Origin: Corallococcus praedator
GTDB lineage: Bacteria > Myxococcota > Myxococcia > Myxococcales > Myxococcaceae
NCBI RefSeq assembly: GCF_003612125.1
Contig: NZ_RAWI01000014.1
Coordinates: 1 to 57,346, forward strand
Length of the DNA stretch: 57,346 bases
Direction of reading: 5' to 3'
The position numbers and the translations under genes were made by a program. The notes beneath the pieces were generated by a model. It was not told the DNA's origin. It ran no database searches and was given only the letters and a program-made list of their open reading frames with translations. Shown here in pieces: positions 26,528 to 49,426 of the stretch. The first letter of the stretch is position 1. The number at the start of each line of letters is the position of its first letter.

Positions 26528-27694
26528 ATGCGCCTTTCCGGGTCGCTCGCCTGCTTCTTCCTGGCCCTCTCCGTGGCTCCCGCCGTCTGGGCCGGGGGCG
26601 GAGTCTTCGTCTCCGACGAACGCGTGGACGCCGTGGAGCAACCGGAGTCCTCCAAGGTCGTCTTCGCCGTGGAACCGGGCGTGACGTATCCGCTCGTGAA
26701 GAAGGGAGGCCCCGCCCGGGCGTGGTGCAAGCTCCAGGGCCCCAGGGCCGAGGGCTGGGTGCTCTGCGATGGCACGCCCACGGAGGCCGTGCAGAAGGCT
26801 CCCGACACGGAAGCCCTCGTGAAGGCGGACCACGCGAACACGCGGCAGCAGTTGGCGGCCCGGAGCGGTGGCGCATCGCTGTCCGACGGGGTGGGCGAGG
26901 GCGCGGGCGCGGGCAGCCCCACGCTTGACGAAACAGGAAGCGTCACCGTCCAGGCCCCCGCGAGCCGCGCGGCCCCTCCGGCCTCCGCGAAGGGCGAGGC
27001 ACCGGCGTGCGAGACCACCTGTGAGAACGCGCCCCTCTTCGCCAAGGCCCCCGCCCTGTCCGCGTTGGATCGCGAGGTGCTGGACCTGTGCCCGGCGCGT
27101 CCCGATGCGAGCGTGAGCGCGGGGGATGTGCAGCGCTTCTTCGCGAAGCACTACGACGATGCCCGCGTGCAGCGGGCGCTCTCCGCGGCGGGCCGTCCGG
27201 GGACGGGCTCCCGGCAGGCGAACCTCGAATGGCTCACGAGCCTGTGGGTGAGCACCGGCCCTCGCAATGCGTTCACCCACGTCTTCTGCGGCGATGACTG
27301 GCAGCGCGGGCCCATTGGCGGGCTCCACTTCCTGCCGCGCTACGCGCAGCTCGAGGCGGAGGGGAAGATTTGCTACCAGGGCCCCGGCAAGGGTGAGGAA
27401 GCCCTGCGCGGCGAGCAGTACCTGATCCGTTTCCGGGGCAACGCGCCCTGGTCCTGCGGGGTGAAGCGGCTCGGGGGCTTCTCCACGACGCAGGACGCGG
27501 TCTCCATCGCCACCATCGGGACGCGCGCCTTTGCCCGGTGCTGTGCCCGGGATGGTGCCAAGAAGGAGGGCGGCGTGTACTCGGCGCCGGACATCGGGGG
27601 CGGCAACTGGCGCATCTGGTGCGGCACGCGCAACGGCACGTACGGCATCGCCACGCTGCACCCGACGGACGACGCCGCCACCTGCGCGGAGTAG
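26528..27694 (+). CDS. Secreted protein with SH3-like and EndoU (XendoU-type) nuclease-like domains
   Basis: A 388-residue exported protein. The signal peptide ends at AVWA-GG (about residue 22). Residues 43-82 look like a bacterial SH3 domain (KVVFAVEPGVTYPL, AWCKLQGPRAEGWVLCD). A low-complexity linker follows. Residues about 180-388 resemble the EndoU endoribonuclease fold: NLEWLTSLW, then FTHVFCGDD, then GGLHFLPRY. Family catalytic residues are H162, H178 and K224 in Xenopus XendoU; here H251, H267 and K313 have identical spacing (16 and 46). D256 matches the Glu five residues after the first His, but the Glu just before it is T250. The end NGTYGIATLHP resembles the conserved TAYP strand. 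Eleven cysteines fit an extracellular, disulfide-bonded protein. Expected activity, by inference, is RNA cleavage. Confidence 0.62.
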   Translation: MRLSGSLACFFLALSVAPAVWAGGGVFVSDERVDAVEQPESSKVVFAVEPGVTYPLVKKGGPARAWCKLQGPRAEGWVLCDGTPTEAVQKAPDTEALVKADHANTRQQLAARSGGASLSDGVGEGAGAGSPTLDETGSVTVQAPASRAAPPASAKGEAPACETTCENAPLFAKAPALSALDREVLDLCPARPDASVSAGDVQRFFAKHYDDARVQRALSAAGRPGTGSRQANLEWLTSLWVSTGPRNAFTHVFCGDDWQRGPIGGLHFLPRYAQLEAEGKICYQGPGKGEEALRGEQYLIRFRGNAPWSCGVKRLGGFSTTQDAVSIATIGTRAFARCCARDGAKKEGGVYSAPDIGGGNWRIWCGTRNGTYGIATLHPTDDAATCAE

Positions 27695-27742: not shown

Positions 27743-30700
27743 CTACGGGGCCTTGCCCACGGTGAGCACCGCGCCCGTGGAGTACGCGGTGAACTCCGGC
27801 GCGTACATGGACTGCACCGTCGCCGGCCCCACGCGGAAGGTGCCCGCGAGGTTGGCGCGCAGCCGGTACTTGAACGTGTACTCGCCCACCGGCAGCGCTT
27901 CGAAGAAGAAGTTCGTCCCCGAGTCGCGCACCTCTTCGTACCAGACGATGCCCAGGTCCCACTTGTGGCGGGAGACGGCGTTCTCCGGCTCCAGGCCCGC
28001 GGCGCGCGGATCCCTCAGGTGCACGTACTCCGCCGCGTGCTTCGTGCGCAGCGACAGTTGCACCTCCACCTCGTCACCGGGCTGGAGCTTCGCGCCCTCG
28101 GCCAGCGGACGCAGCAGCGTCTGGTTGCCTTCGCGCACCCGCACGAAGTAGCGGCGCGACACGTGGAAGAAGTCCCCGCGCTCCTCCTTCGGCAACTCCT
28201 CCGTGGAGAAGTGCCACGTCGCGGAGGCGAAGGCGAAGCCCGGCGTCGTCTTCTCCACCACCGTGGTCGCCGTGGAGGGCTTCACCTCCGGCCCGGTGAG
28301 CACCACCTGGTTCTTCTTCCCCGTGTACACCTCCGGCGAGAAGACCATGGGCACGACCTTCGGCCCCACCGTCACCTTCAGCTCCTCGCGGATGCCCAGC
28401 GCCCCTTCCGCCTCCAGGTAGTTCACCAGCGCGTAGAGCGCCTCCGCCGTGGCGCGCGTGGACTTCCAGTGGCCCAGCTTCTTGTCCAGGAGCAGCCACT
28501 GCACCAGGCCCTCGCGGCGCGGGTCCTTGGGGCGCAATTCCGACAGCGTGCGCAGCGCGAACGCCTGCGTCTCCGTGGTGTCGTTGTACCAGAGCCAGCT
28601 GCGGTCCTCGGGCGCCCAGTACGTCCCCAGCTCCTCCGTCGTCTTCGCGGAGTCCATCACGCTGTCCCAGACCTTCAGCGCGTCCTGCGTCCGCGTGGAG
28701 CGGTGCAGCGTGAGCGCCAGGTAGCCCTTGAGGAACGGCGCGTGCTTCTTCCAGTGTTTGAAGGAGAACTCGAGCATGCGCTGCCGCTCGGCCGGCGTGA
28801 GCGCCTCGCCCGTGTAGCGCGCGTCCGGGTACGAGGACGCCACGAAGTTGAGGAACGTGAGGAACTCCCAGCCCTCGTCCTTCTTCATCAGCGTGTTGGC
28901 GTAGTCCGCCCGGAACTGCGTGGCCAGGTATGCCCAGGCCCGCGCGGTCATCTGCGGAGGCACCTCCACCCCGTGCTCCATCGCGCGCGACAGGCCGTGG
29001 AGGATGTAGACCGTCATGTACGGCGAGGGCGGGCCGCCCGGCCACCAGGGGAAGCCGCCGGAGGCCGTCTGCGCCTTCCTCAGCTTCTCCATCGACGCCT
29101 GGCGCTCCGCCTGCGCCACCTTGGGATCCAACACCCGCAGCAGCTTGTCCTCGGACTCGCCTCCACCCCGCGCCTCGGTGAGCCAGGGCGACTCCTCCAG
29201 CGTCATCTTCCGGTTCGGATCCACCGAGTCCCAGGTCTCGAAGCGCGTGGGCCGCTGGCTCATCTGCTTCGCCATCTTCGCCACCGCCGGGTGCTTCTCG
29301 TAGAGGCTGGAGACGATGCCGGAGGACACGAAGCGGTTGAGCGTCTGCTCCGTGCACTCGTAGGGATAGTCCACCAGGTACGGCAGCGCCTGGAGCACCG
29401 AATAGAAGAGCTGCGCGTCCACCGTGACGACCAGCTGCTCGTTCACCCGCGTGGGGTCATCCGAGCGCTTCAGGTCCTCGAACGTCAGCGTCTTGCGGTC
29501 GTTGTTGCGCAACGTCACGAAGCGCGACTGGGCCAGGTGCATGCGCCCCGGCAACACCGGCAGCGGACGCAGCTCGCCGTCGCTGAAGGCGCCCGACTTC
29601 GCGACGACGCGGAAGGCCACCGGGCCCACGCGCGCGGGCGTGGTGATGGGGAACCTCAGGTGCGTCCCCTTCCCCGCCGCCACCGTGAAGGACTGGGCGG
29701 CCACCTTCACGCCGAAGTCCGCGAGCAGGCTCTTCTGCGTGTCCGGATCCACGATGTCGAACGTGAGCTGGCCCTGCTGGGGACCCGCCCCCGCGTTGTT
29801 CACCACGACCTCCAGCTCCGCGCGGTCCCCCTCGCGCAGGAAGCGCGGCAGGTAGGGGCGCACCATCAGCTCCTTCACGCTGCGGGTCGTGCGCTGCAGC
29901 GAGCCGCCCTTCAGGTCGCGGGTGAGCGCGTGCACCCAGACGCTCCACGCCGTCACCGAGTCCGGCACGGAGAACTCCAGCACCGCCGCGCCGTCCGGCC
30001 CGGTGAGGAGCTGCGGAATCCAGAACGCCGTCTCCGCGAAGTTCGAGCGCAGCGGCGGCGGCGGCGCTTCCGGCGCGTTGTTGATCTCGATGACGGAGTA
30101 CCGCTTCGCCTGGAGCTTCGCCTCCGGCTTCGGCGCCGAGGAAGGGGCCGGAGGGGGCGGCGGAGGCGGAGGCGCCCCAGGAGACCGCTCCTCCTCGGAG
30201 ATGTCCGCCTCCCGCGAGCGTGCCACCGACATGGGCAGGGAGGACCGGACGCGCCGCCCGTAGCCGGGGCCGCCCAGCCCGTAGCCGCTGCCGAACTTCA
30301 ACTGGTCCTGCTCCGGATCCGCCAGGGACCGGGTCCTGTCCAGATCGTCGAAGAGCCAGTCCGCCCCATTGCTGTTCACGGACGACCGGGTGTCGACCGA
30401 CATCGACGTCTGGGGATACAGCTGCGCCACCTGGGGCGGCGTGTGCGGCCCGAAGAGCTCCAACGACTGATCGTACATGTACGCGAGCACCTCCGCCGCC
30501 CCCGCCTCCAGCTTCGCGCCCTTCGGCCCCTTCACCGTCACGCGAAAGGTCTCCTTCGCGCCGGGCCGCAGCGTGTCGCGGAAGGTGGCGAACTCCACGC
30601 TCAGCTCCTTGTCGTCGAAGGGGACGGCCACCGTCTGCTGGAAGCCCAGGTGCTGCCAGTCGCGCACCATCGACAGCGTCACCGTGAAGCCCCCGCGCAG

Positions 30701-33700
30701 CGACTCCGTCACCGGAATCTCCACCACGGCCCGGCCCTGCCCCGCGGTCAGTACGCGGTGCTCGATGCGCCGGGAGCCCTGGTACACGTCCATCGCCAGC
30801 GGCTGGCCCTCGAACCCGGAGGCCACCACCAGCCGCGCCACGTCACCCACCCGCACAGACGACTGCTCCGCCATCAGCAGGGCCGGCAACCCCGTGGGGG
30901 CCCGTGCGCCCGCGACCACGAAGTCGTGCTGCGCGAGGGCCTTCTGGCCGAAGGCATCCGTCGTCTCGTAGCGCAGGCGGTACACCCCCGCGCGCAGCGC
31001 CGGCAGCTTCACGGCCGCCACGCCATCCGCGCCGTGCGTCACCGCCGCCTGCGCCACCTCCGCGCCGTCCTCCCAGCTCCGCACCGTCGACGCCACGTCG
31101 AAGCCCTGTTCCCAGCGCGGCTTGAGCGCATCCCCCGGCGTGGGCGAGGACTCGCGGCGCTCCTGCACCGAGGCCTCCAGCGGACGCGGCGTCACGACCG
31201 GCGCCTCCGAAGGCATCAGCGGACGGGAGGGCTGCTTCAGGGCCAGCAGCCGCCAGCGTCCCGCGCCGGCCTGCGGCGCCCCATCCAGGTTCGAGCGCAC
31301 CAGGCGCACGGCCGACGGCAGGTCCTCGCGGACGAAGCCCTGGTCCGCCTCCACGCGGCCCTCCACCGACACGAAGCCCAGCCGAAAGGCCCGGCTCGCG
31401 GAGCGCGTCTCACCGCCCTCGTCCGTCAGATCCGCCTCCACGCGGTAGCGCCACGACACGCCCGGCGTCTTCGCCAGCCGCTCGTCCGCCTCCGGGGTGA
31501 AGGCCACGGAGAAGCCGCCGTCCTCCCCCACCGACGCGGAGCCGGACGCCACCAGCTGCGACGACGTGGGGATGCGCTCCCAGAACCACCAGGGCGGCAG
31601 CACCGGCTCCCGCGACACGCGCCACTTCACCGCGCCGCTCGTCACCGGCAGACCGAAGAAGTAGCGCGCCTCGCCCTTGAACGTCGCGGGGCGGTTGAGA
31701 CGGAGCGAATCGGGCGCGTCCTTCAGCGTCACCTCGAAGGTGGGCCGCTTGTACTCCTCCACGCGCACGGCGGCGTAGCCCGAGGGACTCGTCCGCACGA
31801 GCCACCGGCCCAGCGGACGACCCGAGGGCACCGTGAACTCCCCCGCCACCGAACCGAACGCGTTGGTGCGCGCCTCGCGGGTCTCCACCACCTGCCCGTT
31901 GGGGTCGCTGAGCGACACCGTCACCGGCGCGTCCGGCAGCACCTGATGGCGCTTCGTGCCCTCGTCCGCGCGATAGGCCACCACCTTCCACAACAGCTTC
32001 TGCTGCGGCCGGTACACGGCCCGGTCGGTGTAGATCAGCGTCTGCGTCAGCGTGTACGGGGGGCGCTCCGCGTACAGGTACACCGAGCCCGGGTACACCA
32101 TCACGCCCTTGCCGCGCCCCAGCACCAGCATCCCGTTCGTGTTGTCCTCGCGGGCCTGCGCTTCGAGCGTGAGCTCCCCGCGCTCATCCGTACGGCGGTT
32201 GACGACGCTGAAGCGGCGCGTCTGGTAGTCCGACGTCACGAGCCGCGCCTCCACGTTCGGCGCGCCGGCCCCGGTCGCGCCGTCCACCACGCGCACCTCC
32301 ACCCGTCCCGAACCGACCCGACGGACCACCACGGCCCACGGCGACACGTTCATCGTCACCGAGACGAGCTTGTTGTCCTTCTCCCGGAAGTCCTCGCGCA
32401 GGGACATCACCAGCGCGTACACGCCGGGCTGGAGCGGCGGCGGCGTGACGAAGGTCTGGTGCGTCTGGAAGTCAGGCGTCTTCGGCAGCGCCGTGCTCCA
32501 GACCGCCTCCGGCTTTCGCGTGCGGATCATCTTGCGCACTTCGTCGCCCGACGCGATGAGCGACAGGTCCTGCCCGGGCTTCGCGATCTTCGCCTCCACA
32601 TCCAGCGCGAACGCCCGGAAGTGGACCGTCGGCACGTTGCGGTGGCGCAGTTCCAGGGAGCGCTTGCCCGCGCCGTCCACCTCCATCACCGTGGCGGACA
32701 GGTCCGGCGCCTCCAGGGCCTTCACCTTCGCGGCGCAGCGCAGCCCCCCGAACGACTTCGGCCACGCCTCTGCCCCTGCCTTCGCCGCGGCATGCGCGGA
32801 CACCTTCCGCCCCGCCTCCTCCTCCAGCTCCGCGAGCTGGAGCTGTCCCACCGACCACCACGGCACGTCCCGGAAGTCCTTCAGGTGCGCGGCCAGGTGC
32901 TCGCGCACGCGCAGTTGATCCGCGGCGTCGGTGAAGGACGTGGTCAGGACGTCGTAGCGCCGCAGCCGCGCCTCCAGGGCCGCCTCGCGCCGGCCCGCCG
33001 CCAGGTGCCACGCCTCCAGGTCCCCCAAGAGCGCCGCCACCTTCATCAGCGGGTGCACGGCCGGATCCACCAGGTCCACCTTCGGCGTGCCCGAAAAGAG
33101 CGCGCCCAGTTCCAACCGGTACACCTGCTGCGCCTGCTCCGGCCGCCACAGGTCCGTGCGCTCCAGCAGCTCCACCCACAGGTACGTCACCGCGTCGCGC
33201 AGCGTGGAGCGGATGCCGGCCGGGTACGTGTTGGGCTGGATGTACTCCGCCAGCGCCTTCACCGGTTCGGTGCCCAGCTCCTGGCGCAGCGCCCAGACGG
33301 CGGCCTGCGCGCGCTGCGCCTCCGTCACCAACTGGTCCTTCGTCCACGCCTTCAGGTCCACCGGCCCCGAGGAGGCCACCTGTTCGCGCTGACCGATTTC
33401 GTAGCCGTACGCGTCCACGTAGTGCGTGAGCACCGCCGCGTAGAAGAGGTTCAGCGTGGCCCGCTGCCGCGCGTCGTCCGGCCAGGGCTGCTCGCGCAGG
33501 AAGCGCACCGCCGTCTCGTAGCCGTGCAGCTGCGTGCGAAGCTGCACGGTGCGCACCAGCGCGCGCGTCCACTCGTCCGCGTCCTTCTTCTGCTTCGCGG
33601 CGACGAGCCGGGCCTCCGCCCCCTGCGCGGCGGACTCCACCTTGTCGTCCGCGACGAGCGCGTCGATGGCCTTCCACGTCGGGGGCGGCTTCGCCTGGGC

Positions 33701-33784
33701 CCGCGCGGACACGGGGTGCAACAGCGCGAACGACAGCAGGCACAACAGGACGGCGAGCGCACGCGGGCGCGAAGGTTCAAACAT
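27743..33784 (-). CDS. Bacterial alpha-2-macroglobulin family protein
   Basis: A 2013-residue secreted protein. A type I signal peptide ends near VSARA-QA (residue 28); no lipobox Cys is seen, so it is not an obvious lipoprotein. Macroglobulin-like beta domains occupy roughly residues 300-1150; a long Pro-rich, protease-sensitive-looking stretch (GAPPPPPPPPAPSS) precedes the A2M signature SNFAETAFWIPQLLT. The thioester is intact: C1477 in YECTEQ, within the alpha/alpha TED domain. Relatives trap attacking proteases or peptides in the periplasm or outer envelope. The usual partner, a PBP1C transglycosylase, is not next to it. GTG 33793 is an alternative start three codons upstream. The Gly-rich region near SGYGLGGPGYGR is unusual. 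Confidence 0.87.
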   Translation of the reverse strand: MFEPSRPRALAVLLCLLSFALLHPVSARAQAKPPPTWKAIDALVADDKVESAAQGAEARLVAAKQKKDADEWTRALVRTVQLRTQLHGYETAVRFLREQPWPDDARQRATLNLFYAAVLTHYVDAYGYEIGQREQVASSGPVDLKAWTKDQLVTEAQRAQAAVWALRQELGTEPVKALAEYIQPNTYPAGIRSTLRDAVTYLWVELLERTDLWRPEQAQQVYRLELGALFSGTPKVDLVDPAVHPLMKVAALLGDLEAWHLAAGRREAALEARLRRYDVLTTSFTDAADQLRVREHLAAHLKDFRDVPWWSVGQLQLAELEEEAGRKVSAHAAAKAGAEAWPKSFGGLRCAAKVKALEAPDLSATVMEVDGAGKRSLELRHRNVPTVHFRAFALDVEAKIAKPGQDLSLIASGDEVRKMIRTRKPEAVWSTALPKTPDFQTHQTFVTPPPLQPGVYALVMSLREDFREKDNKLVSVTMNVSPWAVVVRRVGSGRVEVRVVDGATGAGAPNVEARLVTSDYQTRRFSVVNRRTDERGELTLEAQAREDNTNGMLVLGRGKGVMVYPGSVYLYAERPPYTLTQTLIYTDRAVYRPQQKLLWKVVAYRADEGTKRHQVLPDAPVTVSLSDPNGQVVETREARTNAFGSVAGEFTVPSGRPLGRWLVRTSPSGYAAVRVEEYKRPTFEVTLKDAPDSLRLNRPATFKGEARYFFGLPVTSGAVKWRVSREPVLPPWWFWERIPTSSQLVASGSASVGEDGGFSVAFTPEADERLAKTPGVSWRYRVEADLTDEGGETRSASRAFRLGFVSVEGRVEADQGFVREDLPSAVRLVRSNLDGAPQAGAGRWRLLALKQPSRPLMPSEAPVVTPRPLEASVQERRESSPTPGDALKPRWEQGFDVASTVRSWEDGAEVAQAAVTHGADGVAAVKLPALRAGVYRLRYETTDAFGQKALAQHDFVVAGARAPTGLPALLMAEQSSVRVGDVARLVVASGFEGQPLAMDVYQGSRRIEHRVLTAGQGRAVVEIPVTESLRGGFTVTLSMVRDWQHLGFQQTVAVPFDDKELSVEFATFRDTLRPGAKETFRVTVKGPKGAKLEAGAAEVLAYMYDQSLELFGPHTPPQVAQLYPQTSMSVDTRSSVNSNGADWLFDDLDRTRSLADPEQDQLKFGSGYGLGGPGYGRRVRSSLPMSVARSREADISEEERSPGAPPPPPPPPAPSSAPKPEAKLQAKRYSVIEINNAPEAPPPPLRSNFAETAFWIPQLLTGPDGAAVLEFSVPDSVTAWSVWVHALTRDLKGGSLQRTTRSVKELMVRPYLPRFLREGDRAELEVVVNNAGAGPQQGQLTFDIVDPDTQKSLLADFGVKVAAQSFTVAAGKGTHLRFPITTPARVGPVAFRVVAKSGAFSDGELRPLPVLPGRMHLAQSRFVTLRNNDRKTLTFEDLKRSDDPTRVNEQLVVTVDAQLFYSVLQALPYLVDYPYECTEQTLNRFVSSGIVSSLYEKHPAVAKMAKQMSQRPTRFETWDSVDPNRKMTLEESPWLTEARGGGESEDKLLRVLDPKVAQAERQASMEKLRKAQTASGGFPWWPGGPPSPYMTVYILHGLSRAMEHGVEVPPQMTARAWAYLATQFRADYANTLMKKDEGWEFLTFLNFVASSYPDARYTGEALTPAERQRMLEFSFKHWKKHAPFLKGYLALTLHRSTRTQDALKVWDSVMDSAKTTEELGTYWAPEDRSWLWYNDTTETQAFALRTLSELRPKDPRREGLVQWLLLDKKLGHWKSTRATAEALYALVNYLEAEGALGIREELKVTVGPKVVPMVFSPEVYTGKKNQVVLTGPEVKPSTATTVVEKTTPGFAFASATWHFSTEELPKEERGDFFHVSRRYFVRVREGNQTLLRPLAEGAKLQPGDEVEVQLSLRTKHAAEYVHLRDPRAAGLEPENAVSRHKWDLGIVWYEEVRDSGTNFFFEALPVGEYTFKYRLRANLAGTFRVGPATVQSMYAPEFTAYSTGAVLTVGKAP

Positions 33785-42865: not shown

Positions 42866-44617
42866 TCAGGCGCCCTCGGTGCGCTTCCCCTTCCCGCGCA
42901 GGCGCTCGAAGCCCGCGGTCAGGGCCGAGCGTCCGGTGGCCATCCACCGGCGCCCGCGCTGACGGGCGACGATGACCGAGCCCAGGACCAGCCGCTGGGC
43001 GCGCATCTTGAGCAGGTCCGCGCGCAGCTCCGAGGGCGTCACGGTGCGCACGCGGCCCTGCTCGTAGGCCTCGGTGATGGCGCGGCGCTGGAGCTTGCCG
43101 CTGCTCGTCTTCTGCAACTGGCCGTAGCGGATGAACAGCACGTCCTTCGCCGGCAGCGTCACGCCCACCGTCTCCAGCACCGACCGGCAGACCTGCTGCT
43201 GACTCTCCTCCAGCCGCTCCAGCACGGAGGGGTGGTTCACCTCCGCCAGCACCACCAGCCGCCCCTGCACCTGGATGACGGCGGTGCGGCCCGGGCGGAT
43301 GAAGGGCACGCGCTCCACCGCCTGCTCGAAGTCGGCGGAGAAGAAGCTCTGCCCGTTCACCTTGATGCGGTCGTTGATGCGCCCGGTGATGAAGAGCTCA
43401 CCGCCCTGCTGGAAGCCCAGGTCGCCCGTCGCGTAATAGCCGTCCTCCCCGAGCAGCGGCCGGTCATCCAGGAAGTACGACGGCGCCAGGCTTCCGCCGC
43501 CCAGCTCCACCTCGCCCATCTCCCCTTCGCCGCACACCCGCCCGTCCTCGGCGCGCAGCCGCACCCGGAACTCCGACAGCGGCCGGCCCACGGAGATGGC
43601 GGGCTGGCCGTTGGGCGCGGTGACGACGCGCACCTCCTGGTAGGGCGCCGTGCTCGCGACCATCAGCACCGTCTCCGCCATGCCATAGCAGGGCATGAAC
43701 ACGTCGCGCTTCAGGCCCGCGGGCGCCAGCAGCGCCAGGAACTGCTGGAGGTTGGGGATGTTGATGGGCTCGCTGCCCAGGTAGATGGAGCGCACGCGCT
43801 TCAGGTCCATCCGCTTCACGTCCTCCGCGTCCAGGTCCTTGAGCGTCTTGAGCGCGTAGTCGATGGCGAAGTTGGGGATGACCGACCCGGTGACCTTCTC
43901 CGTCGACATCTGTTCGAACCAGCCCAGCGGATCCATCAGGAAGGCCGCGGGCTGCGACAGGAGCAGGTCATTGCCCTCCACGAGGCAGGTGAGCAGCCCG
44001 CCGATGAGGCCCATGTCGTGGTAGAGCGGCAGCCAGCTCGTCACCCGGTCGTCGTTCGTACGGCCGTCGTGCTGGACGATCATCCGCAGGTTGGCGGACA
44101 GGTTGCCCTGGGTGATGGGAATGCCCTTCGGGAACGACGTCGAACCCGACGAGAACTGCACGAACGCCAGCTCCTCGGGCGCGACCTCGCGCAGCCGCGC
44201 GCCCGCGCGCTTCACGCCCTCCGGAGGCATGGACAGGCGGGGCAGCGGCAGCTCCAGTCCGGAGAGGCTCGGCGCGTCCAGGATGCGCCAGGCGCCGTAG
44301 CGCTCGGTGATGCGCGCGAGGAAGTCGCGGTAGGGCCCCTTGGGCGTGCTCAGGATGTACGGCTTCACCGACAGGGGCAGCGCCCCCAGCTCCATCAACC
44401 CCAGGAAGGAGAAGAGGACGGCGGTGGACGTCTCGAAGGGGAGCACGACGCGCGCGCCGGGCGTCACGCCCTGGGCGCGGAAGAAATCCGCGGCCGCGGC
44501 CACCCGCGCGGGAAACTCCCGGTAGGGCACGAACGCAGGCGGTCCGACGAAGTCGTCGTAGACGAACAGCCCCCGGCGCGGATCCGCCGACTCCAACCGC
44601 TGGATGATTCCAAGCAT
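42866..44617 (-). CDS. Fatty acyl-AMP ligase (FAAL)-type adenylating enzyme
   Basis: A 583-residue ANL-superfamily enzyme that should activate a fatty acid as acyl-AMP and, as FAALs do, pass it to an acyl carrier protein. P-loop: FVQFSSGSTSFPKGIPITQGN (residues about 152-172; SGSTSFPKG). The A5-like region is PCYGMAETVLMVASTAP; the adenylate-binding Asp is in YATGDLGFQ, GRINDRIKVNG follows, and the C-terminal catalytic Lys lies in SSGKLQRRA. FAAL is favoured over acyl-CoA synthetase by the operon with an ACP and PPTase. ATG 44617 has GGAGGGG 6 bases upstream. It is the last gene of the operon, 59 bases after the hydrolase. Confidence 0.84.
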   Translation of the reverse strand: MLGIIQRLESADPRRGLFVYDDFVGPPAFVPYREFPARVAAAADFFRAQGVTPGARVVLPFETSTAVLFSFLGLMELGALPLSVKPYILSTPKGPYRDFLARITERYGAWRILDAPSLSGLELPLPRLSMPPEGVKRAGARLREVAPEELAFVQFSSGSTSFPKGIPITQGNLSANLRMIVQHDGRTNDDRVTSWLPLYHDMGLIGGLLTCLVEGNDLLLSQPAAFLMDPLGWFEQMSTEKVTGSVIPNFAIDYALKTLKDLDAEDVKRMDLKRVRSIYLGSEPINIPNLQQFLALLAPAGLKRDVFMPCYGMAETVLMVASTAPYQEVRVVTAPNGQPAISVGRPLSEFRVRLRAEDGRVCGEGEMGEVELGGGSLAPSYFLDDRPLLGEDGYYATGDLGFQQGGELFITGRINDRIKVNGQSFFSADFEQAVERVPFIRPGRTAVIQVQGRLVVLAEVNHPSVLERLEESQQQVCRSVLETVGVTLPAKDVLFIRYGQLQKTSSGKLQRRAITEAYEQGRVRTVTPSELRADLLKMRAQRLVLGSVIVARQRGRRWMATGRSALTAGFERLRGKGKRTEGA

Positions 44618-44676
44618 GTGAATCCCCTCCTCGTGCTGTCTCACCACCACCGCTCCCGGACCGGCCCCGGAAGCGC

Positions 44677-45600
44677 TCAAGCCGGGGGCGACACCTGCCG
44701 CATCCACGACCACACCCGGGGCAGCACTTCCCGCCGCGCGCGCTCTCCACGCACCACGTCGAAGTGCCCCGCGTCCCAGCTCAACCCCTGCGCGCGGCCC
44801 AGGACGACCAATTCCTTTTGCGCGCTGCCCAGGTGCGCCACCAGCTTCTCCGCGCGGCGGGGCGAGGCATGGAACACGTCCGCCGCCCCCACGCCCGCGA
44901 ACACCGGCAGCGTCACCTGTCCCAGCGCCTTCCAGTAGTCCGTCGCGCCGTCCGCGCTGCGAAAGGCCCCCGTGGGGGCCCAGTCGGTGAACTGCCGCAT
45001 CACCCCCGCGGGTTCGTCCCAGGGCCCCTGCTTGAGCGCCTTCGCCGGGAAGCGGCCCAGGAGGCCCGCCACCGCCGAGGAGAACCCCAGCTGCACGCGC
45101 TTCTTCATCCCGCCGTCGCTGTAGTCATTCACCGCCGACGACAGCGTGCACACGCCCGACAGCATCGCCTGTGCGTCCGGCGCGAGCCCCAGCGCCGCCA
45201 GCGCCGCGTACCCGGCCATGCTGTGGGCCAGGAGGATGAGCGGCCCCTCGTGGCGCGCGCGCACGGCCCGCACCAGGTCCGGCACGTCATGGCGCACGTA
45301 CGTGTCGAAGCTCCAGTCCCACGCGCGCCGGGCCGGCCAGCGGCTCTTGCCATGTCCTCGCAGCGAGGCGACGTAGGCCACGCAGCCGGAGTCCACGAAG
45401 AAGCGCGCGGGCCCGTCCACCTGGCTCCCCAGGAAGAAGCGGCCGTCGGAGAACAGGCCGGGCACGAAGAGCACGCCCAGCCGGGGCACGTTCGCGGACG
45501 CGGCCGGACGCACCTGGGTGACGTGCAGCGCGTGGTCGCCCGACGTGGGCACCCAGAACTCCTCCACGAGGAGGGCGGCTTCGACGGCGTGCGTGCTCAT
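44677..45600 (-). CDS. Alpha/beta hydrolase, possible acyl-chain release or editing enzyme
   Basis: A 307-residue alpha/beta hydrolase. The nucleophile elbow is AHSMAGYAA (Ser), the acid is likely the Asp in GVGAADVFH, and the base His is in AGHFDVVRG. VLFVPGLFSDGRFF forms the oxyanion side and LRGHGKSRWPARR a cap region. No signal peptide. It overlaps the thioesterase gene by 4 bases (ATGA), so it is made together with it. In an acyl-ACP pathway it could hydrolyse an acyl-ACP or acyl ester, or transfer the acyl group; the sequence does not decide. Confidence 0.82.
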   Translation of the reverse strand: MSTHAVEAALLVEEFWVPTSGDHALHVTQVRPAASANVPRLGVLFVPGLFSDGRFFLGSQVDGPARFFVDSGCVAYVASLRGHGKSRWPARRAWDWSFDTYVRHDVPDLVRAVRARHEGPLILLAHSMAGYAALAALGLAPDAQAMLSGVCTLSSAVNDYSDGGMKKRVQLGFSSAVAGLLGRFPAKALKQGPWDEPAGVMRQFTDWAPTGAFRSADGATDYWKALGQVTLPVFAGVGAADVFHASPRRAEKLVAHLGSAQKELVVLGRAQGLSWDAGHFDVVRGERARREVLPRVWSWMRQVSPPA

Positions 45601-46055
45601 GGGGACGTCTCCCGGGAGGCCACCGCGTCACCGCGCGCGACCGTGAGGAACTGCTGCAGCGACGCGAGCGAACGGGTCGCCGCGTCCAGGAACGCCACGT
45701 TCACGACGGCCTCCACCGCGAGGGACGCGCTGCCCTCCCCCAGGTACACGCGCTGGCGGAAGCTCGCGCGGTAGTTCAGGCCGTCCTCGTCCAGGTCATC
45801 CCCGGCGGGCGACTCCAGCACCGTGCGCACCACCACGTCACCGGGCGGAATCTCACGCCGGTAGTCCACCTCCACGCGCGACACCACCGCCACCACCGTC
45901 CCGCCGCGCGACAGGCCGTGGTGCGCGAGCCACGCCCAGCGTCCGGCCTCCAGGTACTCCAGCGCGGTGGCGTTGTTCACGTGGCCCAGGCTGTCCAGGT
46001 CGTTGGGGCGCACGCTCAACGTCAGGGAGACTTCATCGAAATGCACGGGGGACAT
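45597..46055 (-). CDS. Hot-dog thioesterase (4HBT-like)
   Basis: A 152-residue hot-dog fold protein of the acyl-CoA/acyl-ACP thioesterase type. VRPNDLDSLGHVNNATALEYLEAGR is the signature: the Asp near the start and the GHVNN turn place the catalytic residues. It should cleave a thioester from ACP or CoA. ATG 46055 fits the family start; GTG 46061 would add two residues. The stop overlaps the alpha/beta hydrolase start. Together they are a two-enzyme release step in the operon. A role as a proofreading (type II) thioesterase is an alternative. Confidence 0.83.
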   Translation of the reverse strand: MSPVHFDEVSLTLSVRPNDLDSLGHVNNATALEYLEAGRWAWLAHHGLSRGGTVVAVVSRVEVDYRREIPPGDVVVRTVLESPAGDDLDEDGLNYRASFRQRVYLGEGSASLAVEAVVNVAFLDAATRSLASLQQFLTVARGDAVASRETSP

Positions 46056-46084
46056 CCTCACTTCTCACGGCACGCCAGGGAGCT

Positions 46085-46450
46085 TCAGGAGCGGGGCACG
46101 TGCATCACGACGACCACCGTCGAGACGAAGCCGCCGCTGTGCGACAGCGACACGGAGACCTGCCACCCTTCGCGCGTCAGGTGCTCCGCGAGCGCCCCGT
46201 GGAAGTGGAAGCGGGGCGCGTGCCGCGCGTCGTGGAGCAGCTCCGCGTCGGTCCAGAACCAGGTGTCGATGCGGGGCAGCGCCTTGAAGAGGGCCTCCTT
46301 GGCGCTGAAGCCCGCGGCCATGCTCTCCACGGGAGAGCGCGCGTGGGCGAAGCGCTCCAGCTCCGCCGCCGTGAAGAACACGTCCGGTTCGAGCAGCGCC
46401 CGCGTGGCCTCCAGCTCCGCGACGGACTGGAGGTCATGGCCCAGGCCCAT
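46085..46450 (-). CDS. Phosphopantetheinyl transferase (AcpS-type)
   Basis: A 121-residue AcpS-family holo-ACP synthase, which moves 4'-phosphopantetheine from CoA to a carrier-protein Ser. The two signature motifs are GHDLQSVAELEA at the N-terminus (the metal-binding Asp) and FSAKEALFKAL in the middle (Glu and Lys). The start overlaps the stop of the diiron gene by one base (TGATG); GTG 46456 is an alternative. It lies next to its own ACP, so it probably activates that ACP and not the housekeeping one. AcpS acts as a trimer. Confidence 0.88.
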   Translation of the reverse strand: MGLGHDLQSVAELEATRALLEPDVFFTAAELERFAHARSPVESMAAGFSAKEALFKALPRIDTWFWTDAELLHDARHAPRFHFHGALAEHLTREGWQVSVSLSHSGGFVSTVVVVMHVPRS

Positions 46451-47385
46451 CAACACCCGACGAGGTCCATCCAGGTGTCCTCGACGGCCTCGCGCGAATC
46501 CACCGTGATGCCGGTGATGCGCTTGAGCGCGTGGAAGATGAGCTGCTCCTTCTTGCGCAGCGCATCCGGCGTGTACATGCCCTCGCGGTGCTCCAGGTGG
46601 TCCCACCAGTTGACGTGGGTGTCGCGCGCCTCCACCCGCTCGCGCTTGCTGCCGTGCACCTCACCGCCGTCGCGCAGGAACAGGTGCGCCACCGCGAAGG
46701 CCTCCTTCGCCCGGTACGCCCCGCTGTCCACCAGCGCCTTGGCGAAGGCGATGAAGTTGTTCATGTGCTGGATTTCATCCGCGGCCACCTGCTTGAAGAG
46801 CGCCCGCAGGCCCGGGTCCTCGATGATGGCCGCGCACTGGCCGTAGTTCACCGCCGCCACGACCTCGGAGATGGCCAGCAGCGTCAGCGTGCGCAGCATG
46901 TCGTCGTCGGGGAACACCTTGCGGAACTCGATGAAGGTGGCGTTGGAGACGCGCTCCAGCTTCATCACCGTGGAGATGCGGTTGAACGCCGTCTCGTGGT
47001 GCGCCTCCTCCTCGTTCCAGTAGCGGCTCCACGTGCCACACGCCTGCATGATGGCCGCGACCGTCGGGTCCTTCTCCAGCCACCGCCGGCACTCCGCGTC
47101 CGCCAGCCGCTCCAGGCGGTCCGCGCCCGGCTTCGTGGTCAGCTCCGCGCGGCCCGCGTTCCACACCAGGTGACGGTCGGACTCACTCACGCGCGCGAAG
47201 TCCACCGCGCCCAGCGCCTCTACCACGCTCCAGCGCCGGGACTCGTGCAGCCGCTGCTGCTCCCACGCCAGGTCCACCAGCGACAGGCCCTGCACCGTGA
47301 GGGCGTGGTGCAGCTCCGCCACGATGGCCGGACGGGCCTCCACGACGTCTTCCACCGACTGCGACGGCTGGGAATGGATGCTCAT
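46450..47385 (-). CDS. Ferritin-like diiron enzyme, acyl-ACP desaturase-related
   Basis: A 311-residue, mainly helical protein with the ExxH pairs of four-helix diiron oxygenases. E127-x-x-H130 is in WNEEEAHHE, E174 in LLAISEVV, and E204-x-x-H207 in AADEIQHM. WNEEEAHH parallels WTAEENRH and ADEIQH parallels ADEKRH of soluble acyl-ACP desaturases, with similar spacing. The likely chemistry is O2-dependent desaturation, hydroxylation or oxidation of an acyl chain held on ACP; AurF-type N-oxygenase is a less likely alternative. It starts by ATGA overlap with the ACP gene and overlaps the PPTase start. The C-terminal 60 residues (REGMYTPDALRKK) are probably outside the core. Confidence 0.72.
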   Translation of the reverse strand: MSIHSQPSQSVEDVVEARPAIVAELHHALTVQGLSLVDLAWEQQRLHESRRWSVVEALGAVDFARVSESDRHLVWNAGRAELTTKPGADRLERLADAECRRWLEKDPTVAAIMQACGTWSRYWNEEEAHHETAFNRISTVMKLERVSNATFIEFRKVFPDDDMLRTLTLLAISEVVAAVNYGQCAAIIEDPGLRALFKQVAADEIQHMNNFIAFAKALVDSGAYRAKEAFAVAHLFLRDGGEVHGSKRERVEARDTHVNWWDHLEHREGMYTPDALRKKEQLIFHALKRITGITVDSREAVEDTWMDLVGC

Positions 47386-47678
47386 GCGCTCTTGCGCTCC
47401 GGGTTGCGGACTTCTTCCAGGAAGATGGCGAGGACCTTCGACACGGGGGTGTCGAGCGACAGCGCCGGCAAACGCACTCTCAGTCCAAAATCCTTTCGCA
47501 ATCCGTTCGAGGTCCGCGCGAAGGCCTCCATCAAATCCACACTGTTCGTCATCCGGTCCGAGCGCGTGATGAGGGCCGCGAGCGTCATGTCCTCCGAGAG
47601 CAGTTCGGCTTCTGGCAGACCTACGTGTTCCGAGAACTTACGGAGGAGGTAGGACTCCAAATCCTGTGCGTCGGGCAT
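47382..47678 (-). CDS. Stand-alone acyl carrier protein
   Basis: A 98-residue small acidic helical protein with the ACP pattern. The prosthetic-group Ser is S46 in RMTNSVDLMEAFA; the usual D-S-L is N-S-V, with the Asp before Ser replaced by Asn. Helix II (SVDLMEAFARTS) is where partner enzymes bind. The N-terminal helix is DLESYLLRKFSEHVG. First gene of the operon, start ATG 47678 with GGAAGGAAA upstream; its stop overlaps the diiron gene start (ATGA). It should carry a fatty acyl chain on phosphopantetheine. The C-terminal 20 residues are a charged extension. Confidence 0.76.
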   Translation of the reverse strand: MPDAQDLESYLLRKFSEHVGLPEAELLSEDMTLAALITRSDRMTNSVDLMEAFARTSNGLRKDFGLRVRLPALSLDTPVSKVLAIFLEEVRNPERKSA

Positions 47679-47683
47679 GTGTT

Positions 47684-47710
47684 GACTTTCCTTCCGGGGG
47701 GCTGAAAGTC
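47684..47710 (-). promoter_or_regulatory. 5'-UTR stem next to the ACP Shine-Dalgarno
   Basis: gactttc and gaaagtc pair perfectly over 7 bp around a 13-base loop just before the ACP start. In the mRNA the GGAAGGAAA ribosome site lies at the loop/3' arm, so the stem would partly hide it. It may also be a dyad operator near the start of transcription. Confidence 0.42.
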
Positions 47711-47725
47711 GATTCCACAGTCAAA

Positions 47726-47753
47726 AATCTAGCTGTCGCTGAACGGCTGTCAA
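47726..47753 (-). promoter_or_regulatory. Candidate sigma-70 promoter for the ACP operon
   Basis: On the minus strand, a consensus TTGACA (47753-47748) is followed by a 16-base spacer and TAGATT (47731-47726), giving a transcription start near 47718 and a 40-base leader. It drives the minus-strand operon ACP to acyl-AMP ligase. Confidence 0.52.
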
Positions 47754-47808: not shown

Positions 47809-48987
47809 TCACACACCCAGACGCGAGATTTCTTCAGCGGTGAAACCCGCCGCCTCAAGGATGACGCGGGAGTGCTGGCCCAGCGCGGGCGGTGGACGCA
47901 ACGCGACATCCCCCATGCGCAGCGGCGTGAGCAGGTGCGTTACGCGAATGCCGCGCTGCGCATCCTCCGTCTCCACGAAGAGGCCGCGGGCGCGCAGCTG
48001 TGCATCGGACAACAGTTCATCCCCCTCCGCGACGGGCTCCACGCAGAGGTCCGCGCCGGCCAGCAGTTCGCGCCAGTGGGCCAGGGGTTCGCTTTCGAAG
48101 ATGCGCTGGAGCTCCGCCTTCACCCGCTCGCCGGGTTCACCTGGCACGTACGCATCGTCCAGCAATTCCGGGCGGCCCAGCTTCGCCGCGAGCGCTCCGA
48201 AGAACTTGGGCTCCAGCGCGCCCACCGCGAGCCAGCGGTTGTCCGCGGTGCGGTACAGGCCGTAGCTGGGGTAGCCGCCGTTGAGCGCCTCGCGGCCGCG
48301 CGTGAGCGGCGTTCCTTGCGCGCCGGCGAACAGGCGCGCGGCCAGGTGCAGGTGCAGGAACGCCAGCGCGCCGTCCGTCATGGACACGTCCACGAAGCGG
48401 CCCACGCCCGTGCGCTCGCGCTCGTGCAGCGCGGCGAGGATGCCCACCAGCGCGAACAGGCTGCCCCCTCCAATGTCCGCCACCTGCACGCCCGGGAACG
48501 CGGGGGCGCCGTCCGCTTCGCCGCCGTAGCCCAGCAGGCCCGCCCGGGCCACGTAGTTCAGGTCATGCCCCGCCTTGAGCCGGTCCGGGCCCGTCTGCCC
48601 GTAGCCGGAGATGGCGCAGTAGATGAGCCGGGGGTTCTTCGCGCGCAGCACCGCTTCTCCCACGCCCAGCTTGTCCATGACGCCGGGCCGGAAGCTCTCC
48701 ACCAGCACGTCGTAGTGGGAGACGAGGCGCAGGAGCGCGTCGCGGCCCTCCGGCGTCTTGAGGTTCAGCGCCAGCGAGCGCTTGTTGCGGTGCAGCCCGT
48801 AGAAGAGCGCGCCCTCGCCGTCGCGCTGGGGCGGCATGTGCCGGGTGGCGTCCCCCACGTCCGGATCCTCCACCTTGTCGACGGTGGCCCCCAGGTCCGC
48901 CAGCACCAGCGTCGCGTAGGGGCCGGGCAGCAGGCGCGACAGGTCCAACACCCGCAGGCCCGCGAGGGGCGATGACGACGGAGACAT
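47809..48987 (-). CDS. CaiB/BaiF family CoA transferase, alpha-methylacyl-CoA racemase-like
   Basis: A 392-residue class III CoA-transferase-fold enzyme. H141 (KAGHDLNY) and D171 (QVADIGGG) are exactly 30 residues apart, as in the alpha-methylacyl-CoA racemase pair H126/D156; the transferase-type catalytic Asp position is also present in the fold. It should interconvert the R and S 2-methyl branches of acyl-CoA, a prerequisite for beta-oxidation of methyl-branched fatty acids. ATG 48987; GGAG lies 11 bases upstream. The SCP2-like gene is upstream on the same strand (109-base gap). CoA transferase activity remains an alternative. Confidence 0.84.
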   Translation of the reverse strand: MSPSSSPLAGLRVLDLSRLLPGPYATLVLADLGATVDKVEDPDVGDATRHMPPQRDGEGALFYGLHRNKRSLALNLKTPEGRDALLRLVSHYDVLVESFRPGVMDKLGVGEAVLRAKNPRLIYCAISGYGQTGPDRLKAGHDLNYVARAGLLGYGGEADGAPAFPGVQVADIGGGSLFALVGILAALHERERTGVGRFVDVSMTDGALAFLHLHLAARLFAGAQGTPLTRGREALNGGYPSYGLYRTADNRWLAVGALEPKFFGALAAKLGRPELLDDAYVPGEPGERVKAELQRIFESEPLAHWRELLAGADLCVEPVAEGDELLSDAQLRARGLFVETEDAQRGIRVTHLLTPLRMGDVALRPPPALGQHSRVILEAAGFTAEEISRLGV

Positions 48988-49096
48988 GAGGGGGGTTACT
49001 CCAGGAGGGGGAGGATGAAACGGAAGACGGCGCGTTCCCCGTGGAAGGAAACGCGCCGCCGACTCGACACGGGAAGCGACTGGTGCGGGCTTCGGC

Positions 49097-49426
49097 TCAG
49101 CCGAGCAGCTTCGCGAGCTTCATCGCGAGGCCCATGTCCATCGGCTTGAACTTGAGCTTGCCCTGCATGGCCGCCATCTGCGCGTTCAGCTTCTTCTCGC
49201 GGATCTTCACGAAGTCGTCGTTGCTGACGGTGACCGTCATCTTCGACGCGCCCTCGATGCCCGAGGACACCCAGCCCTCCGACTTGGTGGCGTCCAGCGT
49301 CCACTTGCCTCCGCCCTCACCCGAGATGTCGAAGTGGATGATGGCGTTGATGTCCTTCGCCAGCTCCGGCTTCTCCTTCAGGACGGCGGGAATGTCGGTC
49401 TCGATGATGTCCTTCGCGGTCGCCAT
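49097..49426 (-). CDS. SCP2 sterol-binding-domain protein
   Basis: A 109-residue protein made of one SCP2 domain: N-terminal helix DIIETDIPAVLKEKPE, then INAIIHFDISGEGGGKWTLD, VSNDDFVKIREKKLNAQMAAMQGKLKFKPMDMGLAMKLAKLL. The fold has a hydrophobic tunnel that binds lipids, acyl chains or acyl-CoA. It probably carries a lipid-like substrate. The start ATG 49426 has AGGAG 6 bases upstream. The palindrome 22 bases upstream resembles the one before the acyl-CoA dehydrogenase gene. Downstream, the racemase-like gene is on the same strand. Confidence 0.85.
   Translation of the reverse strand: MATAKDIIETDIPAVLKEKPELAKDINAIIHFDISGEGGGKWTLDATKSEGWVSSGIEGASKMTVTVSNDDFVKIREKKLNAQMAAMQGKLKFKPMDMGLAMKLAKLLG

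What the first reader, a model, noticed from the sequence alone, without database searches (positions are those of the whole stretch)
42866..47753. Self-contained acyl-ACP pathway: FAAL + ACP + diiron enzyme + own PPTase + two release enzymes
Six minus-strand genes are tightly packed, three junctions overlapping (ATGA, TGATG, ATGA), with one good promoter. Together they supply an activator (acyl-AMP ligase), a carrier (ACP), its maturation enzyme (AcpS-type), a ferritin-like diiron enzyme with complete ExxH ligands, and two release enzymes (hot-dog thioesterase, alpha/beta hydrolase). There is no PKS, NRPS or FAS gene. By analogy with acyl-AMP ligase/desaturase/ACP loading modules such as JamABC, which use a membrane desaturase, the operon may make a free unsaturated, hydroxylated or otherwise oxidised fatty acid from a pre-formed one. 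The soluble diiron enzyme in that slot is what looks new. Function is inference.
Basis: partly seen in the sequence, partly recalled or inferred. Interest (0 to 1): 0.8.

Follow-up and report, generated by a model that had tools for sequence, protein, structure and literature searches.

The report
Stand-alone fatty-acid oxidising gene cassette
This soil bacterium carries a compact six-gene kit, shared with Streptomyces and Frankia, that appears to hang a ready-made fatty acid on its own carrier protein, oxidise it (most likely by adding a double bond) with a soluble iron enzyme, and release it again; the exact product has not been measured.

Summary
Six minus-strand genes (ACP, diiron, AcpS, hot-dog thioesterase, alpha/beta-hydrolase, FAAL) lie at 42866-47678 with the three stated overlaps and a TTGACA promoter invariant in 15 relatives. 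The window is Corallococcus. The same gene order recurs in Streptomyces, Frankia, Saccharothrix and Catellatospora at 66-72% identity for the diiron protein. The tree nests the myxobacterial copies among actinobacterial ones.

The diiron protein is a divergent relative of soluble acyl-ACP desaturases: 23 of 25 orthologues hit PF03405, and five ligand residues plus a likely sixth are invariant. The ACP has an ACP fold and an invariant S46. A sister Streptomyces cluster adds a ferredoxin, as desaturase chemistry needs.

Best reading: FAAL loads a free fatty acid on the ACP, the diiron enzyme oxidises it (desaturation most likely, hydroxylation the main rival), and a thioesterase frees it. The claim that a soluble diiron enzyme in this slot is new fails: CylC and NocO (FAAL-ACP-ferritin-like halogenases) precede it. 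PKS-free FAAL/ACP/desaturase/thioesterase release is known from polyynes. New are this diiron subfamily, its private ACP and AcpS, and the two-phylum distribution. No product or activity is shown.

The parts
47726..47753 (-). promoter-like site TTGACA-16-TAGATT upstream of the ACP gene
   Evidence: TTGACA invariant in 15 Myxococcaceae intergenic regions, -10 region conserved as TTAGAT in most
47382..47678 (-). free-standing acyl carrier protein, 98 aa, phosphopantetheine-site candidate S46 (MTNSVDLMEAF)
   Evidence: S46 invariant in 25 orthologues; AlphaFold model pLDDT 86.6; nearly all top structural matches are ACPs, Z 6-8; no Pfam match
46450..47385 (-). ferritin-like diiron oxidase, 311 aa, divergent acyl-ACP-desaturase (PF03405) relative; predicted ligands E81, E127, H130, E174, E204, H207
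46085..46450 (-). AcpS-type phosphopantetheinyl transferase, 121 aa
   Evidence: PF01648, AcpS structures, D10, E56, K60 (numbering of P0006) conserved
45597..46055 (-). hot-dog thioesterase (4HBT_2), start ATG 46055 (alternative GTG 46061)
   Evidence: PF13279, thioesterase structures incl. YbaW, D21/D23/H27/N29 (numbering of P0005) conserved
44677..45600 (-). alpha/beta-hydrolase, 307 aa; S127, H279 and candidate D241 conserved
   Evidence: PF12146, conservation; absent from some cassettes
42866..44617 (-). fatty acyl-AMP ligase, 583 aa, start ATG 44617
   Evidence: PF00501 + PF23024; best PDB matches all FAALs; catalytic-Lys motif TSSGK conserved

Best explanation
A mobile, free-standing fatty-acid oxidation cassette. 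AcpS converts the dedicated ACP to its holo form on S46. FAAL activates a pre-formed fatty acid as acyl-AMP and loads it on that ACP. The diiron protein, a divergent soluble acyl-ACP desaturase relative fed by ferredoxin, oxidises the ACP-bound chain with O2, most likely introducing a double bond. The hot-dog thioesterase (helped in some species by the alpha/beta-hydrolase) releases the free modified acid, which in Streptomyces is probably exported by an MFS pump. Shown here by computation: gene identities, predicted metal ligands and ACP serine, fold class, conserved linkage, purifying selection, promoter conservation. Inferred: loading of this ACP, ferredoxin as donor, desaturation as outcome, chain length, position and biological role.
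For: Diiron family: 23 of 25 orthologues match PF03405, more than any other family, one above Pfam's cut-off; best solved-structure profile match is mycobacterial acyl-ACP desaturase DesA2, E 8e-5; both ExxH motifs plus E81 and E174 are invariant, the 2-His/4-Glu set typical of acyl-ACP desaturases and R2-type enzymes. Profile alignment to ferredoxin-fused desaturase-like proteins L019/L020 (97%, E 1e-10) places E81 on the canonical first Glu. The diiron gene directly follows its own ACP gene in nearly all loci, including tandem ACP-diiron pairs (L051). The sister clusters carry a ferredoxin gene downstream of FAAL. Neighbours fit unsaturated-fatty-acid chemistry: membrane desaturase and cyclopropane-fatty-acid synthase in L037 and L052, crotonase in 9 actinobacterial loci, MFS exporter in 9.
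Against: The window protein itself is below Pfam's PF03405 cut-off (19.3 against 22.7 bits). The fold search cannot separate desaturases from R2lox, RNR R2 and the azoxy synthase VlmB (Z 16-17.7). A conserved insertion of about 15 residues after E81 is not seen in desaturases. The sister clusters hold an FMN alpha-hydroxy-acid-type dehydrogenase and an aminotransferase, which fit hydroxylation at C2 as well or better. No ferredoxin lies in the Corallococcus operon. No biochemical data exist.
Confidence: 0.5

Rival explanations
1. Same cassette logic, but the diiron enzyme is a hydroxylase: it adds OH to the ACP-bound chain (for example at C2), and the thioesterase releases a hydroxy fatty acid.
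For: The fold ties with oxygen-inserting and N-hydroxylating relatives such as VlmB; sister clusters pair the cassette with an L-lactate-dehydrogenase-type FMN enzyme and a PLP aminotransferase, a chain that would turn a 2-hydroxy acid into a 2-amino acid.
Against: Nearest curated family is acyl-ACP desaturase; the FMN/aminotransferase genes occur only in the sister clade (about 39% identity), not next to the main-clade cassettes.
Confidence: 0.25
2. The diiron enzyme performs another ACP-bound oxidation: C-C cleavage to a shorter (di)acid as BioE does, or halogenation as CylC/NocO do.
For: BioE is a ferritin-like diiron oxygenase that cleaves long-chain acyl-ACP at C7-C8 (PMC12915131); CylC/NocO chlorinate FAAL-loaded acyl-ACP (PMC12101540).
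Against: CylC-type enzymes use QExxH and HxxDExxH with 3 His/3 Glu (PMC12101540); here the motifs are EExxH and DExxH with no upstream His. No biotin genes were seen beside the cassettes. No BioE sequence was at hand for a direct comparison.
Confidence: 0.13
3. The cassette makes a modified acyl-ACP as a building block for another pathway elsewhere in the genome, and the thioesterase and hydrolase are only editing enzymes.
For: FAAL+ACP+oxidase triplets often feed a PKS (PMC8406957); L052 keeps ACP+diiron without a neighbouring FAAL or thioesterase.
Against: Apart from unrelated genes in single loci (a KAS III-containing set about 3 kb upstream in L065), no PKS, NRPS or condensing enzyme recurs beside the cassettes; thioesterase and FAAL are the most constant partners, and exporters recur.
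Confidence: 0.12

Closest known systems
Alkyne/polyyne cassettes (JamABC; caryoynencin, protegencin and cepacin clusters)
   Same: FAAL, free-standing ACP, desaturase(s) and thioesterase; in the protegencin cluster the product has 18 carbons (C18H18O2) (PMC8406139)
   Different: Those desaturases are membrane enzymes and polyyne clusters carry rubredoxin; here the oxidase is a soluble ferritin-like protein and the operon has its own AcpS
CylABC / NocLMO (cylindrocyclophane-type halogenase modules)
   Same: FAAL + ACP + soluble ferritin-like dimetal enzyme acting on the ACP-bound chain (PMC8406957, PMC12101540)
   Different: AurF-like 3-His site and chlorination; a PKS follows in many such clusters; no AcpS or dedicated thioesterase described in the text read
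Soluble acyl-ACP desaturases (castor stearoyl-ACP desaturase, mycobacterial DesA; PF03405)
   Same: Ferritin-like fold, 2-His/4-Glu ligand set, ACP-linked context (ferredoxin supply, PMC8002970)
   Different: Low identity (under 20%), conserved extra segment after the first ligand, own ACP and FAAL instead of the house fatty-acid synthase ACP
BolL of the bolagladin cluster
   Same: acyl-ACP-desaturase-like protein in a specialised-metabolite cluster, proposed to introduce one of the two double bonds of the acyl chain (PMC7756342)
   Different: Sits in an NRPS cluster and is proposed to act on fatty acid synthase-derived acyl-ACP; no FAAL loading described in the text read
BioE
   Same: Ferritin-like diiron oxygenase that uses long-chain acyl-ACP (PMC12915131)
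   Different: Cleaves C7-C8 for biotin; not shown to be a sequence relative here

Membership tests
Soluble acyl-ACP desaturase (PF03405) | Pfam profile match above gathering score | tested here: inconclusive
   Window protein 19.3 bits against 22.7; 23 of 25 orthologues match at E<=0.01 and the G013 orthologue scores 28.5 bits, above cut-off
Soluble acyl-ACP desaturase (PF03405) | Six metal ligands E, ExxH, E, ExxH on four helices | tested here: met
   E81, E127/H130, E174, E204/H207 invariant and on four predicted helices; E81 assignment from profile alignment and helix depth only; metal geometry not measured
Soluble acyl-ACP desaturase (PF03405) | Ferritin-like fold matching desaturase structures better than other ferritin-like enzymes | tested here: inconclusive
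   Z about 16 to castor and ivy desaturases, but tied with R2lox and RNR R2
Soluble acyl-ACP desaturase (PF03405) | Introduces a double bond in acyl-ACP with ferredoxin and O2 | not testable with these tools
   needs in vitro assay; only indirect support from ferredoxin genes in sister clusters
CylC/AurF dimetal oxidase | QExxH and HxxDExxH motifs, 3-His site (definition from PMC12101540) | tested here: not met
   Motifs are EExxH (E127/H130) and DExxH (E204/H207) without the extra His; profile comparison with a small set of AurF-like proteins gave no match
FAAL | Sequence closer to FAALs than to acyl-CoA ligases | tested here: met
   The best PDB matches are FAALs such as FadD32, FadD23, FadD28 and E. 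coli FAAL; PF23024 C-domain. The FAAL-specific insertion was not separately inspected
Acyl carrier protein | ACP fold with invariant Ser at start of helix 2 | tested here: met
   S46 invariant, at start of predicted helix 46-64, ACP structures fill the match list; PF00550 not matched
Acyl carrier protein | Carries 4'-phosphopantetheine | not testable with these tools
   needs mass spectrometry
JamABC-type alkyne cassette | Membrane fatty-acid desaturase JamB (PF00487-type) | tested here: not met
   The oxidase matches PF03405, not PF00487

The most novel reading that the evidence does not exclude
The diiron proteins (main clade plus the sister clade) form a new family of private-ACP-dependent, ferredoxin-driven oxidases whose reaction is not classical mid-chain desaturation (for example C2 hydroxylation leading to 2-amino fatty acids, or alpha,beta-desaturation), packaged in a cassette that passed from actinobacteria to myxobacteria.
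Probability: 0.3. Interest if true: 0.7.

Novelty: new variant of a known kind. Interest (0 to 1): 0.5.

Why it matters
If right, it is a minimal, transferable unit that turns a free fatty acid into an oxidised free acid using its own carrier protein, carrier-activating enzyme and soluble oxidase. That would be a tractable system for carrier-protein recognition by diiron enzymes, a possible source of new lipid signals or antibiotics in Corallococcus and Streptomyces, and a handy biocatalyst because every component is soluble.

Tried and rejected
Viral contigs: no relative of the diiron protein. Profile search of the ACP family against PDB sequences: nothing, so the ACP call rests on fold, serine and context. 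NCBIfam gives no usable name for the diiron protein (only weak encapsulin-ferritin hits). PDB sequence search of the alpha/beta-hydrolase: nothing. Literature searches for a published FAAL/ACP/PF03405 cassette in Streptomyces or myxobacteria found none in the held open-access library; subscription papers are not covered. Acidomycin as product: considered and rejected because its cluster is NRPS/P450-based. Membership of the CoA-transferase gene (47809-48987) in the operon: rejected, since the conserved promoter lies between it and the ACP gene and it is absent from actinobacterial cassettes. The BioE paper text held no ligand residues to compare.
Full report
Observation. The window comes from the genus Corallococcus: the nearest public contigs are Corallococcus species and the genome search lists 15 congeners. 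The single sigma-70-like site upstream of the ACP gene is phylogenetically conserved: TTGACA is identical in 15 aligned Myxococcaceae intergenic regions. All genes are under purifying selection, dN/dS 0.10-0.47. The downstream gene (41701/41827-42855) is convergent, so the operon ends at the FAAL gene.

Distribution. The diiron gene occurs in 13 of 15 other genomes of the genus and in 24 of 195 Myxococcota genomes, all in one family. At 66-72% identity it occurs in Streptomyces, Frankia, Saccharothrix and Catellatospora, with the order ACP-diiron-AcpS-hot-dog-(hydrolase)-FAAL kept. In Streptomycetaceae the main clade is in 6 of 395 sampled genomes and a sister clade (about 39% identity) in 5. 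Myxobacterial rows form one clade inside an actinobacterial grade, which points to transfer from actinobacteria. The most constant parts are ACP, diiron, hot-dog thioesterase and FAAL. AcpS was not found in the Frankia cassettes or in L035, L038 and L063; the hydrolase was not found in L036, L037, L038, L055, L056, L059 and L061. A MAG from outside the family (L064) holds FAAL-ACP-diiron-AcpS in a different order with an apparently frameshifted diiron gene. Gene calls in the relatives come from a simple caller of my own, checked with tblastn.

The diiron protein. Pfam places it nearest to FA_desaturase_2 (PF03405): the window copy is sub-threshold (19.3 bits against 22.7), 23 of 25 orthologues match, and the G013 copy passes the cut-off. 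A profile of the family finds mycobacterial DesA2 as the best solved relative (E 8e-5). E81, E127, H130, E174, E204 and H207 are invariant in 25 sequences and lie on four predicted helices (pLDDT 81.6). The E81 assignment is the least certain; it rests on profile alignment to ferredoxin-fused desaturase-like proteins in the same bacterial family and on helix depth. Structural comparison confirms the ferritin-like R2/desaturase fold but cannot choose among R2lox, RNR R2, desaturases and VlmB. A conserved segment of about 15 residues after E81 marks the subfamily. The AurF/CylC ligand pattern is absent.

The carrier and its partners. The ACP is too divergent for Pfam but has an ACP fold and an invariant serine at the start of helix 2. 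The ACP gene directly precedes the diiron gene in nearly all loci, and Hyalangium (L051) has two ACP-diiron pairs in tandem, so the two proteins behave as a unit. The FAAL is a FAAL and not an acyl-CoA ligase by its relatives. AcpS, thioesterase and hydrolase keep their catalytic residues.

Neighbours as clues. Nine actinobacterial loci have an MFS transporter upstream and nine a small crotonase, usually just after FAAL. L037 and L052 carry a cyclopropane-fatty-acid synthase and a membrane desaturase just upstream of ACP-diiron. These fit unsaturated fatty-acid chemistry and export. The sister clusters (L143-L147) hold, in several or all members, a ferredoxin, a patatin-like protein (by eye, no Pfam match), an FMN dehydrogenase of the L-lactate type and a PLP aminotransferase. 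The ferredoxin supports a desaturase-like electron supply; the FMN enzyme and aminotransferase would suit a 2-hydroxy acid and keep hydroxylation open.

Mechanism. Most likely: AcpS arms the ACP, FAAL loads a pre-formed acid, the diiron enzyme desaturates it on the ACP with ferredoxin and O2, and the hot-dog thioesterase frees it. I hold the ACP-tethered oxidation at about 0.8 and desaturation in particular at about 0.5. Chain length, position, redox partner in Corallococcus and biological role are unknown.

Comparison with the known. The design resembles polyyne cassettes, which use FAAL, ACP, membrane desaturases, thioesterase and rubredoxin (PMC8406139). It also resembles CylABC/NocLMO, which put a soluble ferritin-like dimetal enzyme in the same slot (PMC8406957, PMC12101540). 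BolL is a further precedent for an acyl-ACP-desaturase-like protein in a specialised pathway (PMC7756342), and BioE for a ferritin-like diiron enzyme on long-chain acyl-ACP (PMC12915131). What is not matched by anything found in the open-access library is this diiron subfamily, its bundling with a private ACP and AcpS, and its presence in two phyla. I file it as a new variant of a known kind.

Noticed in passing
L143-L147 (Streptomycetaceae): Sister clusters: ACP-diiron-AcpS-thioesterase-FAAL, in three of them followed by a patatin-like protein and a ferredoxin, with an FMN alpha-hydroxy-acid-type dehydrogenase, aminotransferase, abhydrolase_3 and TetR regulator nearby; possibly a route to 2-amino fatty acids.
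   Followed up: partly
L019:949-2097, L020:754-1950: Natural fusions of a single-cluster ferredoxin to a desaturase-like diiron domain in the same bacterial family; the best profile relative of the cassette's diiron protein.
   Followed up: partly
L057:353-3181 (also L054, L055, L058, L061): Divergent neighbouring unit of a second FAAL, a ThiS-like protein ending in GG and an unassigned 276-278 aa protein; suggests sulfur or thiocarboxylate chemistry beside the cassette.
   Followed up: no
L051:5069-7888: Two tandem ACP-diiron pairs (about 58% identical) sharing one AcpS-thioesterase-hydrolase-FAAL set, as if two successive oxidations were made.
   Followed up: partly
L064:7001-7765: Diiron gene of a soil MAG matched in two pieces, as if frameshifted; a real break or an assembly error.
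   Followed up: no
window 26528-27694 (+): 388-aa protein with a weak C-terminal bacterial EndoU nuclease match (E 3e-6), perhaps a polymorphic-toxin-like protein.
   Followed up: no
window 47809-49426 (-): CoA-transferase family III gene and SCP-2 sterol-carrier gene just upstream of the cassette; synteny kept in several Myxococcaceae but not in actinobacteria.
   Followed up: partly
window 27743-33784 (-): Bacterial alpha-2-macroglobulin of 2013 aa.
   Followed up: no
L036:3371-6301 (-): In this relative the FAAL frame stays open for 976 aa, running antisense into the neighbouring gene; a lost stop codon or a sequence error.
   Followed up: no
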